The notes under the pieces: generated by a model
Told to the model about the DNA's origin: nothing
Seen by the model: the letters and a program-made list of their open reading frames with translations, nothing else
Databases searched by the model: none
Shown: in pieces, positions 15,029 through 18,350 of the stretch
Numbering within the stretch: the first letter of the stretch is position 1
Layout: the number at the start of each line of letters is the position of its first letter
DNA from: Myxacorys almedinensis A
Lineage (GTDB): Bacteria; Cyanobacteriota; Cyanobacteriia; Leptolyngbyales; Leptolyngbyaceae
NCBI RefSeq assembly: GCF_010091945.1
Contig: NZ_WVIE01000003.1
Location: 62,001 to 126,000 of the forward strand
Direction of reading: 5' to 3'
DNA length: 64,000 bases
Translations under genes and position numbers: made by a program

Positions 15029-16201
15029 TTAAGGCTGAGTGGTGATTAAGGTAATTTGATCCATCGCAGCCCGATATCGATCTCGATTGGCGAATTGGGA
15101 ATAAACTTTTGCTGCCTGTTTAAAGTCAGCGATCGCAGCTTTTTTATTGCCTTGCTGAGATTGAAGCCGACCTCGGCGGTAAAATGCATCTCCCAAGGTA
15201 ATAGGGCTGCCCCATTTCTGATTAATTCTAATGGCTTCGCTGTAATCTTTGATTGCCTGTTGAGGTTGTTTCAGGTCTGATTCATAGAGTACAGCTTGGT
15301 TGAAATAAGCCATAGAACTGGGTCTAAGCTGAATGGAGCGGGTAAAGTCCTTTAGGGCACCTTGATGGTCTCGCAGAAAGCGTCTTGTGATTCCTCGGTT
15401 TGAGTACAATGTGGGATCGCTTGGATACTGTTGAATTCCTGCGCTAAATACCTGTAATGCTTTCTGAAAATTGTTTTGTCTAAATTGAAGCAGCCCTACT
15501 GTGATGTAGTGGTTAATTTGTTGGACTTGTACTCCGGCTGTGCTTCGCCGCCCAGGGAGAAGATTTACTGCGCCTACTGGAACTGCAAAATTGAAATTTG
15601 TTCCAGGAGCACCTGATCTCACAATACCGACAACATAGCCATCCTCATTGAGTAAGGGACCGCCAGAACTTCCAAAGGTAACCGATGCTGTAAATTGAAT
15701 CAGACCACTTTCATCGATCCGGCTCACGATTCCATCACTAAGGCTTCTATCTAGCATTCCAGTTGCCTTAGAACTGGGATTTCCGATCGCATAAACTTTC
15801 TGCCCAATTTGAGGTGGCACAGCTTGAATTCTCAGGCTTGGAAGCGGTTTCTGAGGCTGGATCTGAATCATTGCTAAATCAACATTAGGATTGCGAGATA
15901 CGACAGTGCCCTGATAAACTGAACCGTCTGCTAACTTAATCCGAACTTGTCGGTTATTTCCAACAATATGCTGATTGGTCAGAATAAAACCTTTGGAACT
16001 CAAAATGAACCCGCTTCCGCGATTGAATGACTTGCCGTTTGGTGCTTCTATCACAGCAACCGCAGGGCTAGACCGTTGATAGATTGTTACTGGATCAAGG
16101 GCAAAAGCACCATGGGTGGCACCTAGCGCGATTAGCGCTGCCAAGCTCCGAAGGATCGCAGCAGAATTCAAAACGGTAACAGTCTTTGCAAGAAGTTTCA
16201 T
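15029..16201 (-). CDS. Secreted trypsin-like serine protease with C-terminal TPR repeats
   Basis: This 390-residue exported protein begins with a signal peptide of about 34 residues ending THGAFA. A DegP-like S1C protease domain spans about 40-210. Its catalytic triad is His in LTNQHIVGNN, Asp in NPNVDLAMIQ and Ser in TFGSSGGPLLN. Residues about 245-380 contain three or four tetratricopeptide repeats (ITVGLLQFRQNNFQKALQVF, TLYSNRGITRRF, AFYRRGRLQSQQGN). There is no PDZ domain, so substrate or partner choice is probably by the TPR part. This protease-TPR layout is frequent in filamentous cyanobacteria. A truncated copy of its first 48 codons lies upstream at 16812-16958. Confidence 0.9.
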   Translation of the reverse strand: MKLLAKTVTVLNSAAILRSLAALIALGATHGAFALDPVTIYQRSSPAVAVIEAPNGKSFNRGSGFILSSKGFILTNQHIVGNNRQVRIKLADGSVYQGTVVSRNPNVDLAMIQIQPQKPLPSLRIQAVPPQIGQKVYAIGNPSSKATGMLDRSLSDGIVSRIDESGLIQFTASVTFGSSGGPLLNEDGYVVGIVRSGAPGTNFNFAVPVGAVNLLPGRRSTAGVQVQQINHYITVGLLQFRQNNFQKALQVFSAGIQQYPSDPTLYSNRGITRRFLRDHQGALKDFTRSIQLRPSSMAYFNQAVLYESDLKQPQQAIKDYSEAIRINQKWGSPITLGDAFYRRGRLQSQQGNKKAAIADFKQAAKVYSQFANRDRYRAAMDQITLITTQP

Positions 16202-16434
16202 GGCAGTTCACTTAGCGCAAGGCACAATTATTGAATTTCTCAAGTACTTTTGATTGTCTTCGGTTGGTGAAAAGCAAGTCAGGGAAACGATGTCCAGCGA
16301 CCCCATGACCACGCTCAATGTTAGAAGCGCTCTTGAGCGAAAATCTACTTCGGCTTGGTAGCGATCGTAATTTGTAGGATGCACTGCCACTGGTTTCTAG
16401 GTGGGATGTCAGCAGAGCCTATCCGTGTATGAAC

Positions 16435-16767
16435 CTAACGACGGCAGAGTCTACCAGTGTAGTACGCGTTCCTAATATGACTATATGGACCGAGTCCAAT
16501 CGTGCCAGGTTTGACGCAGATGACCCGACCGCGCCCTCTCCAAGTGACAAGCTGAACCTCAACGATCGTATATACAGGACCAGTGCAGTGCCTATAGAAC
16601 GACCAGCCTGACCAGACTCCTCGCCCAACATAAAACCCGCACGCTGACGCTTCGGACTTTGCAGTTGGAACAGTCACGAAGCCAAGTGCTAGTCCGACAG
16701 CGATCGTTGCACCAGCAAGCAGTTTTACAATCTTCTTCGACTTGTTCACCATTGTCGTAAACCCCAT
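16435..16767 (-). CDS. Small four-cysteine secreted protein (DUF6355-like)
   Basis: This 110-residue precursor has a signal peptide (IVKLLAGATIAVGLALGFV, cleavage near SEASA). The start may be the ATG at 16767 or at 16752. The mature part of about 67 residues has four Cys (ACGFYV, RHCTG, RVICVK, GRLCRR), suggesting two disulfides. The pattern CGFY...YxHC...V.VE...PG...LG....I.NAYY.G.LC resembles DUF6355 proteins, which I associate mainly with actinobacteria. That assignment is from memory and not tested. It sits between the intact protease gene and the decayed protease fragment, on the same strand. Confidence 0.7.
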   Translation of the reverse strand: MGFTTMVNKSKKIVKLLAGATIAVGLALGFVTVPTAKSEASACGFYVGRGVWSGWSFYRHCTGPVYTIVEVQLVTWRGRGRVICVKPGTIGLGPYSHIRNAYYTGRLCRR

Positions 16768-16811
16768 TTGATTGTTTTTCTAGTAAGCGAAAATGTAGCA
16801 ATTGAAGCGGT

Positions 16812-16958
16812 TCAAACCGCAGGGCTAGACCGTTGATAGATTGTTACTGGATCAAGTGCAAAAGCGATATCAGTGACCCCTAGCGCGATTGGCACTGCCA
16901 AGCTCCGAAGGATCGCAACAGAATTCAAAACGGTAGCGGTCTTTGTCAAAAATTTCAT
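16812..16958 (-). pseudogene. Decayed duplicate of the 5' end of the TPR-protease gene
   Basis: Read on the minus strand from the ATG at 16958, this encodes 48 residues almost identical to residues 1-48 of the protease at 15029-16201. It covers the signal peptide and DPVTIYQRSSPAV, then hits TGA exactly where the similarity ends. The differences are scattered substitutions without frameshift (for example KFLTKTATV for KLLAKTVTV). It is a truncated duplicate. It might still be translated as a short signal-peptide-like product, but there is no reason to think so. Confidence 0.9.
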
Positions 16959-17302
16959 GACACTTCACTAAACTTTTGTTTGTGTGTTTTTAACCTTTCG
17001 TTCCGGTTATTAAATGGGGGCAATGGTTGAAAGGTTGCGATCGCAGGTGATGAAGGACAACCTCTCTGGGCGATCGCGTCCACATGAGTAAGTTGATGCA
17101 AAGGTTTAAGCGATTTCTTGTGCCCTCAAATATCATCTAACGAATAGCAGGTTGCATCAGAGCCTAGCGACTCACCTTGACTGGCGTTCGAGGACTAGCT
17201 TTCGAGGGACAATCCTTTCTGATAGCACTGATCAATTAAAATATCAGAGCCAAATAGTAGGAAAACTAACCCTCGAAAGCAGTTCTTTCAGAAAGCTCAC
17301 AC
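16959..17302. other. Gap holding a long inverted repeat
   Basis: Perfect 11-bp arms GCTTTCGAGGG (17198-17208) and CCCTCGAAAGC (17270-17280) face each other across 61 bases. The interior has further partial symmetry (TGATA...TATCA). It looks like a small non-coding mobile or structural element. No target duplication or transposase is visible. The rest of the gap holds nothing I recognise. Confidence 0.5.
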
Positions 17303-17725
17303 TTAGTGAACATAGTGGCACTGTTTGGCAACCAGCACCCGCCACCTCTTAGCCCAAAGCTCGGCGCAAGCATCCCCTTTCGGAACGTTTGCATTAATTT
17401 TGTATTTCCATTGACCTACACGACTGCATCCCCGATGGATATTGCCATTGATACGACGCTTACCGTATCCATAGGTGAACCTCATCGACGAATCGCAGAT
17501 ATTCGCCGCAGATCCGAAATTTGCACCTTGCCAATTAATCCGGGTTCCTTTGCCGTTAATTGCATGATGAAGCTGACCCGCCGGTATTCCCACTGATTGT
17601 CCACCAATGTTAGCGGTGAAGCCTCCCCAATACTGGTAGCCGGATGCGGATGCTAGGCTCACCGTCGGCGCAGCAACAAGACTAGCAAGCGTTATCAGAG
17701 TCGCCGTAACCTTCTTGTTTGGCAC
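17303..17725 (-). CDS. Small secreted protein with four cysteines, unknown family
   Basis: This 140-residue precursor has a clear signal peptide (KKVTATLITLASLVAAPTVS, cleavage near LASAS). The mature region is Gly-rich and aromatic-rich (YQYWGGFTANIGG, FTYGYGKRRINGN), with Cys in NICDSS, HRGCSRVG, DACAELW and KQCHYVH. It ends in HYVH. I do not recognise the family with certainty; similar short exported proteins are more familiar from actinobacteria. The ATG is preceded by an AGGAGG-like run (AAAGGAGGATAGC), so it is well positioned for translation. It lies in the same orientation as the other small secreted gene and the protease. Confidence 0.75.
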   Translation of the reverse strand: MPNKKVTATLITLASLVAAPTVSLASASGYQYWGGFTANIGGQSVGIPAGQLHHAINGKGTRINWQGANFGSAANICDSSMRFTYGYGKRRINGNIHRGCSRVGQWKYKINANVPKGDACAELWAKRWRVLVAKQCHYVH

Positions 17726-18134: not shown

Positions 18135-18206
18135 AGCCCGTGGCGAGGATCGAACTCGCGACCTCACCCTTACCAAGGGTGTGCTCTACCACTGAGCCAC
18201 ACGGGC
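18135..18206 (-). tRNA. tRNA-Thr (GGT anticodon)
   Basis: A 72-base cloverleaf reads on the minus strand. The acceptor pairs GCCCGTG with CACGGGC. The anticodon stem is CACCC/GGGTG with loop TTGGTAA (anticodon GGT), and the T-arm contains GTTCGATCC. The 3' CCA is not encoded. It follows tRNA-Tyr by 62 bases on the same strand, and the two are probably cotranscribed. Confidence 0.97.
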
Positions 18207-18268: not shown

Positions 18269-18350
18269 TGGGCCGAGCTGGATTTGAACCAGCGTAGGCG
18301 TAGCCAGCGGATTTACAGTCCGCCCCCATTAACCACTCGGGCATCGACCC
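18269..18350 (-). tRNA. tRNA-Tyr (GTA anticodon)
   Basis: This 82-base class II tRNA has a long variable arm. The acceptor pairs GGGTCGA with TCGGCCC (one G-T pair). The anticodon loop is CTGTAAA (anticodon GTA), and the T-arm contains GGTTCAAATCC. It lies upstream of tRNA-Thr in transcription order. Confidence 0.97.

What the first reader, a model, noticed from the sequence alone, without database searches (positions are those of the whole stretch)
16812..16958. Truncated duplicate of the TPR-protease 5' end
The first 48 codons of the protease at 15029-16201 recur here with scattered substitutions and an intact frame up to an exact breakpoint and stop. A small secreted gene sits between the two copies. 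This suggests duplication followed by rearrangement, or insertion of the small gene into a duplicate.
Basis: seen in the sequence. Interest (0 to 1): 0.5.

Follow-up and report, generated by a model that had tools for sequence, protein, structure and literature searches.

The report
Tiny mobile repeat inside duplicated leader
The start of a cyanobacterial protease gene is indeed repeated on the far side of a small orphan secreted-protein gene, and both copies carry a 24-letter dispersed DNA repeat that has slipped in frame into the export signal, as the same repeat has done in several other genes of this genome.

Summary
In detail: 155 nt around the protease start (copy A, 16058-16212) recur at 16815-16969 (copy B), 88% identical, in frame for 48 codons, then TGA. 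Five relatives have an orthologue, one each, none doubled. Copy B keeps the ancestral upstream sequence (relic of an ABC permease 3' end); the full gene (A) matches relatives only from about 10 nt before its ATG. So a single gene's 5' end was partly duplicated, and a 602-nt piece with an orphan DUF6355 gene lies between the copies. No second full protease is needed. The larger finding is inside both copies: a 24-nt dispersed repeat within a HIP1 octamer (GCGATCGC), adding eight residues in frame to the signal peptide; the five orthologues lack it. The repeat occurs 33 times in this genome and 90 in its congener. At 7 of 9 alignable loci (13 of 22 tested) the congener is 24 nt shorter, cysteine desulfurase and PheT included. 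It fits the published insertion rule of SDR5, a known very small cyanobacterial repeat, but its sequence could not be compared. Ordinary as a duplication; more interesting as a frame-neutral mobile repeat inside protein genes.

The parts
15029..16201 (-). Full protease gene (copy A start plus body), Trypsin_2 + TPR, 390 aa
   Evidence: only full copy in own genome
16058..16212 (-). Repeat copy A: 11 nt of leader plus codons 1-48 of the protease
16815..16969 (-). Repeat copy B: 11 nt of leader plus codons 1-48, at the ancestral 5' junction
16812..16958 (-). 48-codon ORF of copy B, ends in TGA at the breakpoint
16128..16159 (-). Dispersed repeat in copy A, 32 nt including the two HIP1 halves; codes AILRSLAALIA in the apparent signal peptide
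16133..16156 (-). The 24 nt of copy A absent from orthologues (one of four equivalent placements)
16885..16916 (-). Dispersed repeat in copy B, 32 nt including HIP1 halves
16890..16913 (-). The 24 nt of copy B absent from orthologues (one of four equivalent placements)
16213..16814 (-). 602-nt segment between the repeats; no BLAST match to the upstream sequence of the relatives' genes
16435..16767 (-). Orphan gene of an apparent secreted protein, DUF6355
   Evidence: own genome only, in searches of 58 and 291 genomes, own included
16970..17076 (-). Relic of the 3' end of an ABC permease gene (BPD_transp_1 in ULC007) = ancestral upstream of the protease
   Evidence: BLAST and alignment to L068/L069; permease family

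Best explanation
(1) The ancestor had one protease gene, downstream of an ABC permease gene. (2) After the split from its congener a 24-nt structured repeat inserted into a HIP1 octamer (GCGATCGC) in the signal-peptide codons; 24 nt is eight codons, so the frame was kept and the hydrophobic core was lengthened. (3) Later the 11-nt leader plus 48 codons were duplicated and a 602-nt piece with a DUF6355 gene came to lie between the copies. Copy B keeps the ancestral upstream and is now a 48-codon ORF with no protease body; copy A supplies the start of the working gene. Shown: the repeats, the ancestral upstream of B, the empty sites, the dispersed family. Inferred: that DUF6355 arrived as the insert that separated the copies, that it came by transfer, that the repeat moves by copying into HIP1, and that A is the expressed gene.
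For: Both copies carry the repeat, so insertion precedes duplication. Five orthologues (G001, G020, G028, G008, G017) lack the eight residues (G028 lacks one more nearby); the ULC007 orthologue reads GCGATCGC at the site, the window GCGATC+24 nt+GC. B's upstream aligns to the permease 3' end of L068/L069; A's does not beyond about 10 nt. DUF6355 was found in none of the other 57 and none of the other 290 genomes searched. Repeat family: own 33, G001 90, reversed-pattern control 0. Other loci: 13 of 22 further copies were tested against G001; 9 had an alignment across the site; 7 lack a net 24 nt (6 as one gap), 1 is filled in both, 1 unclear. Cysteine desulfurase and a serine-racemase-like protein show an 8-residue gap against their best solved relative, the one alignment shown for each. 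Pair 18-26 switches G-C to C-G in 12 of 49 distinct copies; 0 of 500 shuffles reach the covariation score. The first 9 nt of the 602-nt piece match A's leader 7 of 9 (0.16% of window 9-mers do), as expected if it landed in a tandem duplicate with a short target duplication.
Against: A-B divergence (15 of 120 sites, repeat left out) equals A-ULC007 (14 of 120), which is high for a duplication younger than the congener split, though signal peptides evolve fast. Besides the repeat only two sites unite A and B against both outgroups. No terminal inverted repeats were found in the 602-nt piece, so its entry is unexplained. RNA folding of the repeat is no better than shuffles (z 0.05 to 0.66), and two of five covariation measures (pairs with a change on both sides, further pair types) do not exceed shuffles (154 and 134 of 500). 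The repeat is not concentrated in genes: 14 of 22 (own) and 17 of 40 fetched (G001) lie in ORFs of 200+ codons, against 0.85 and 0.78 of HIP1 sites in the same loci.
Confidence: 0.72

Rival explanations
1. Whole-gene tandem duplication, then a deletion that removed the body of the first copy and brought DUF6355 next to codon 48.
For: Leaves the same order of parts; homology includes the leader as well as coding sequence.
Against: No doubled gene in the five genomes with an orthologue; no second piece of the protease body was found in the own genome. Still needs DUF6355 to arrive separately.
Confidence: 0.2
2. Single-crossover integration of a circular DNA that carried a diverged 5' fragment of the protease plus DUF6355, so A and B differ because they come from different strains.
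For: Gives the order B, insert, A in one step and explains 12% divergence with an identical 42-nt tail (0.002 if differences are uniform; longest-run permutation 0.03).
Against: The donor would need the same 24-nt repeat at the same site; the five orthologues found lack it, and DUF6355 had no match in the plasmid collection. The tail codes the conserved start of the mature protein, so constraint may explain its identity.
Confidence: 0.15
3. Copy B is a functional leader peptide or a stand-alone secreted 14-residue peptide kept by selection.
For: Frame intact over 48 codons with 7 B-specific changes; ancestral upstream retained.
Against: Seven changes are too few to test; 5 of 7 B-specific changes fall at codon positions 1 and 2; seen in one genome only.
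Confidence: 0.08
4. The 24-nt repeats are not mobile but old and lost precisely in relatives.
For: One site (L021/L082) is filled in both congeners.
Against: The protease site is empty in five genomes; three other sites lack a net 24 nt in both G001 and G020; copy numbers differ, 33 and 90, between congeners, and 49 of 58 genomes have none at this stringency.
Confidence: 0.07

Closest known systems
SDR5, a small dispersed repeat of Nostoc punctiforme and relatives (Elhai et al. 2008, not held, abstract recalled; its insertion rule seen as a passage in PMC4390886)
   Same: Repeat of the 21-27 nt class (recalled), inserted precisely inside HIP1; [quoted passage not shown] one stem pair with compensatory changes.
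   Different: Sequence identity could not be tested; the window's lineage is near Phormidesmis and Myxacorys, not Nostoc (inference); here copies sit in frame inside conserved enzyme genes. Whether the 2008 paper reports such sites is not known to me.
Rickettsia palindromic elements (RPE; passages in review PMC10969869)
   Same: Palindromic repeats inserted in frame in unrelated protein genes.
   Different: RPEs are about 150 bp with a conserved coded peptide; this one is 24 nt, lies in HIP1, and is found in all six reading frames.
HtrA/DegP-type serine proteases
   Same: Trypsin_2 domain.
   Different: Far below the NCBIfam cut-offs for DegP/HtrA (98 against 416 bits for the best) and carries TPRs.
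DUF6355 (PF19882)
   Same: Small protein, 55.2 bits against cut-off 26.6.
   Different: Found in one of 291 class genomes searched, the own one.

Membership tests
SDR5 | Sits inside a HIP1 octamer | tested here: met
   ULC007 orthologue has GCGATCGC at the empty site; G001 has it at the empty sites of L025 and L026. At L022, L028, L031, L034, and at the protease, the G001 site is a diverged octamer.
SDR5 | Insertion between nucleotides 3 and 4 of HIP1 (PMC4390886 passage) | tested here: inconclusive
   Compatible; ATC is shared by both ends, so four placements are equivalent.
SDR5 | Length 21-27 nt (recalled) | tested here: met
   24 nt at the protease and, as one gap, at 6 other loci
SDR5 | Structure supported by compensatory changes (recalled) | tested here: met
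   Pair 18-26 is GC 34, CG 12, GU 2, other 1 of 49; 12 of the 13 double-change cells come from this one pair, and two of five measures do not exceed shuffles; energy not below shuffles
SDR5 | Consensus sequence of Nostoc SDR5 | not testable with these tools
   Primary paper not held; a 32-nt query hit 8 plasmid records, none cyanobacterial
Rickettsia palindromic element | About 150 bp with a conserved coded peptide (PMC10969869 passage) | tested here: not met
   24 nt; different reading frames used
MITE | Terminal inverted repeats and target duplication of a parent transposon | not tested
   No parent transposon was sought; the 32-nt unit is itself an interrupted palindrome
HtrA/DegP | Score over the NCBIfam cut-off | tested here: not met
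   98 of 416 bits for the best model, others lower
DUF6355 | Score over the Pfam cut-off | tested here: met
   55.2 against 26.6 bits

The most novel reading that the evidence does not exclude
A 24-nt mobile repeat, targeted to HIP1, spreads through protein-coding genes of this cyanobacterial lineage as a frame-neutral eight-residue insertion: it is tolerated in central enzymes (PheT, cysteine desulfurase) and in a signal peptide, where it became the hydrophobic core. It would be among the smallest mobile DNA known to rewrite proteins in frame, a natural linker-scanning agent.
Probability: 0.6. Interest if true: 0.72.

Novelty: new variant of a known kind. Interest (0 to 1): 0.5.

Why it matters
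HIP1 is very frequent in many cyanobacteria and its role is open (PMC4390886, listing and passage). A repeat whose empty and filled sites can be compared between congeners, inside enzymes with solved relatives, makes two questions testable: how a 24-nt sequence without genes moves, and how proteins absorb recurrent in-frame insertions. The duplication itself looks like ordinary locus decay, but it orders events: repeat first, duplication second.

Tried and rejected
Six-frame openness of the repeat as a sign of selection: rejected, 501 of 5000 shuffled cores are also open in all six frames. Enrichment of the repeat in genes: rejected, it is depleted against HIP1 sites. Stable RNA fold: not supported. 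Terminal inverted repeats of the 602-nt piece: two weak inner pairs only. Promoter and terminator scans: one promoter-like and no terminator-like site, no more than in shuffles. DUF6355 source in plasmids: no match. A G001 porin locus with the repeat, used as query, gave only short hits and no orthologue, so no information. Literature: searches (listings only, best rows shown) showed no title or abstract reporting this kind of repeat in frame in cyanobacterial genes; the primary 2008 paper could not be read and most subscription papers are not held, so I do not claim it is unpublished.

Rows left out: of 24 repeat copies in the own genome, A and B were set aside and 22 used; the 9 or more further places of the looser pattern (33 in all) were not examined. 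13 of the 22 were sent for the empty-site test, mostly those in long ORFs; four of the 13 (L017, L018, L029, L030) gave no alignment across the site in G001, and alignments used lenient gap costs. In G020 four had an alignment across the site: three lacked a net 24 nt, one (L022) did not. From G001 40 of 90 places were fetched, taken from the printed list, which ran from fewest mismatches and was cut, and skipping most near contig ends. The alignment for covariation used 56 copies: 24 own and 32 of the 40 from G001. From G090 10 of 44 were fetched.

Full report
What is there. The protease gene at 15029-16201 (-) codes a 390-residue Trypsin_2 + TPR protein with an apparent signal peptide (signal peptide judged by eye, no predictor was run). 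A 155-nt stretch around its start, 16058-16212, recurs at 16815-16969 with 19 of 155 differences. The copy is open for 48 codons and stops where homology ends. Between the two lies a 602-nt piece with a small DUF6355 gene. The finding as written is correct.

How the locus arose. Of 57 other genomes searched, five have an orthologue at 61-85% identity, one each (the printed list is cut, but runs by E-value and a second full copy would stand near the top). Two are named through identical 2.2-kb stretches in another collection: Phormidesmis priestleyi ULC007 (G020, L068) and a Myxacorys californica MAG (G001, L069). In ULC007 the protease starts 29 nt after an ABC permease gene and is followed by an ABC ATPase gene with a MalK-type domain. 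In the window a decayed 3' end of that permease lies directly upstream of copy B, not of the full gene: B aligns to L068 through the leader and on into the permease, while A aligns only from about 10 nt before its ATG. So B occupies the ancestral 5' position and A belongs to the ancestral body. The simplest history is one gene whose 5' end was partly duplicated with the DUF6355 piece coming between. The first nine bases of that piece resemble A's leader (7 of 9; 202 of 127,982 window 9-mers do as well), which fits a small tandem duplication followed by an insertion with a short target duplication, but this is suggestive only. DUF6355 was found in none of the other 57 relatives and none of the other 290 genomes of the class searched, so the gene looks foreign; its source was not found.

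The repeat inside both copies. A DNA search of the own genome with this region returned a series of 28-37 nt hits. They define a 32-nt unit, GCGATCCTTCGGAGCTTGGCAGAGCCAATCGC, whose flanks look unrelated from copy to copy apart from A and B. The five orthologues lack the eight residues at this place; the one in G028 lacks one more nearby. At DNA level the ULC007 gene has an intact HIP1 octamer, GCGATCGC, where the window has GCGATC, 24 extra nt, GC; G001 has GCGATCTC. The extra codons lie in the middle of the apparent signal peptide. In copy A the inserted octapeptide is more hydrophobic than the commonest consensus would give (best 12-residue hydropathy 2.17 for A, 1.96 for B, 1.55 for a hypothetical consensus insert, 2.03 for ULC007). 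That this reflects selection is inference.

It is a family, and it moved. With up to 3 mismatches the own genome has 33 places, the congener G001 has 90, seven further genomes have 1-6, and 49 of 58 have none; a reversed control pattern has none. With 2 mismatches 19 of 388 class genomes have it, one in another family (G090) 44 times. Several own copies lie in long ORFs. Ten such proteins were scanned and eight had a Pfam family: Na/H exchanger, family 38 mannosidase, class-V aminotransferase (cysteine desulfurase), phosphopantetheinyl transferase, GNAT, PheT, a PALP enzyme, an AcrB-type pump. Of ten scanned from G001 nine had one, among them GcvP, CbiG, an FGGY kinase, peptidase U32 and a P450. 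Thirteen of 22 own copies were tested for an empty site in G001: nine aligned across it, six showed one 24-nt gap, one (L027) a split gap of net 24, one (L021) was filled in both, one (L037) was unclear; four gave no such alignment. In G020 three of four lacked a net 24 nt. Against the best solved cysteine desulfurase and the best solved serine-racemase relative the proteins show an 8-residue insertion at the repeat; in PheT the alignment around the site is ragged. Loss in relatives rather than gain is not excluded for sites tested in G001 alone.

Limits. The repeat does not prefer genes: 14 of 22 own copies and 17 of 40 fetched G001 copies lie in ORFs of at least 200 codons, against 0.66 and 0.57 for random places and 0.85 and 0.78 for HIP1 sites in the same loci; in G090 it is 4 of 10 fetched. 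So insertions in genes are common but rarer than HIP1 sites would allow. All six reading frames occur in ORFs of 150 codons or more, but openness in all six is not rare for shuffles of the core (501 of 5000).

How it probably works. A three-way or hairpin structure is supported mainly by one pair that switches G-C to C-G (12 of 49 distinct copies; 0 of 500 shuffles reach the covariation score, but two of the five measures are reached by 154 and 134 shuffles), not by folding energy. The precise 24-nt gain inside HIP1 suggests copying of a folded single strand into a break in HIP1; PMC4390886 (passage) suggests directed cutting at HIP1 as part of the explanation for SDR5. This step is inference, perhaps 0.4.

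Known or new. The insertion rule and size point to SDR5 of Elhai and colleagues; the paper was not held, so sequence identity is untested and I do not know whether it reports sites in genes. In-frame insertion in genes is known for Rickettsia palindromic elements (PMC10969869, passages). What may be new is the combination: a 24-nt HIP1-bound repeat repeatedly adding eight residues to conserved enzymes, with empty sites in a congener.

Noticed in passing
17303-17725 (-): Second small orphan protein with an apparent signal peptide (140 aa), found in none of the other 57 genomes and with no Pfam or NCBIfam match at the thresholds used; it lies upstream of the permease relic.
   Followed up: partly
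L068 784-6330 and L069 upstream of 1721: In ULC007 the protease sits among genes of an ABC transporter (binding protein, two permeases, ATPase); the neighbouring permease has no intact frame in the congener's locus or in the window.
   Followed up: partly
16133-16156 against 16890-16913: Against the commonest consensus reading (ILRSLAEP), copy A has lost the proline and the acidic residue, raising hydropathy; copy B keeps the proline.
   Followed up: partly
16815-16856 and 16058-16099: The last 42 nt of the two copies are identical while all 19 differences lie in the other 113 nt; gene conversion or constraint.
   Followed up: partly
18135-18206 and 18269-18350 (-): tRNA-Thr(ggt) and tRNA-Tyr(gta) just beyond the two orphan genes.
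   Followed up: no
   Followed up: partly
L021 and L082: One repeat site is filled in both congeners with the same repeat, probably an older insertion.
   Followed up: no
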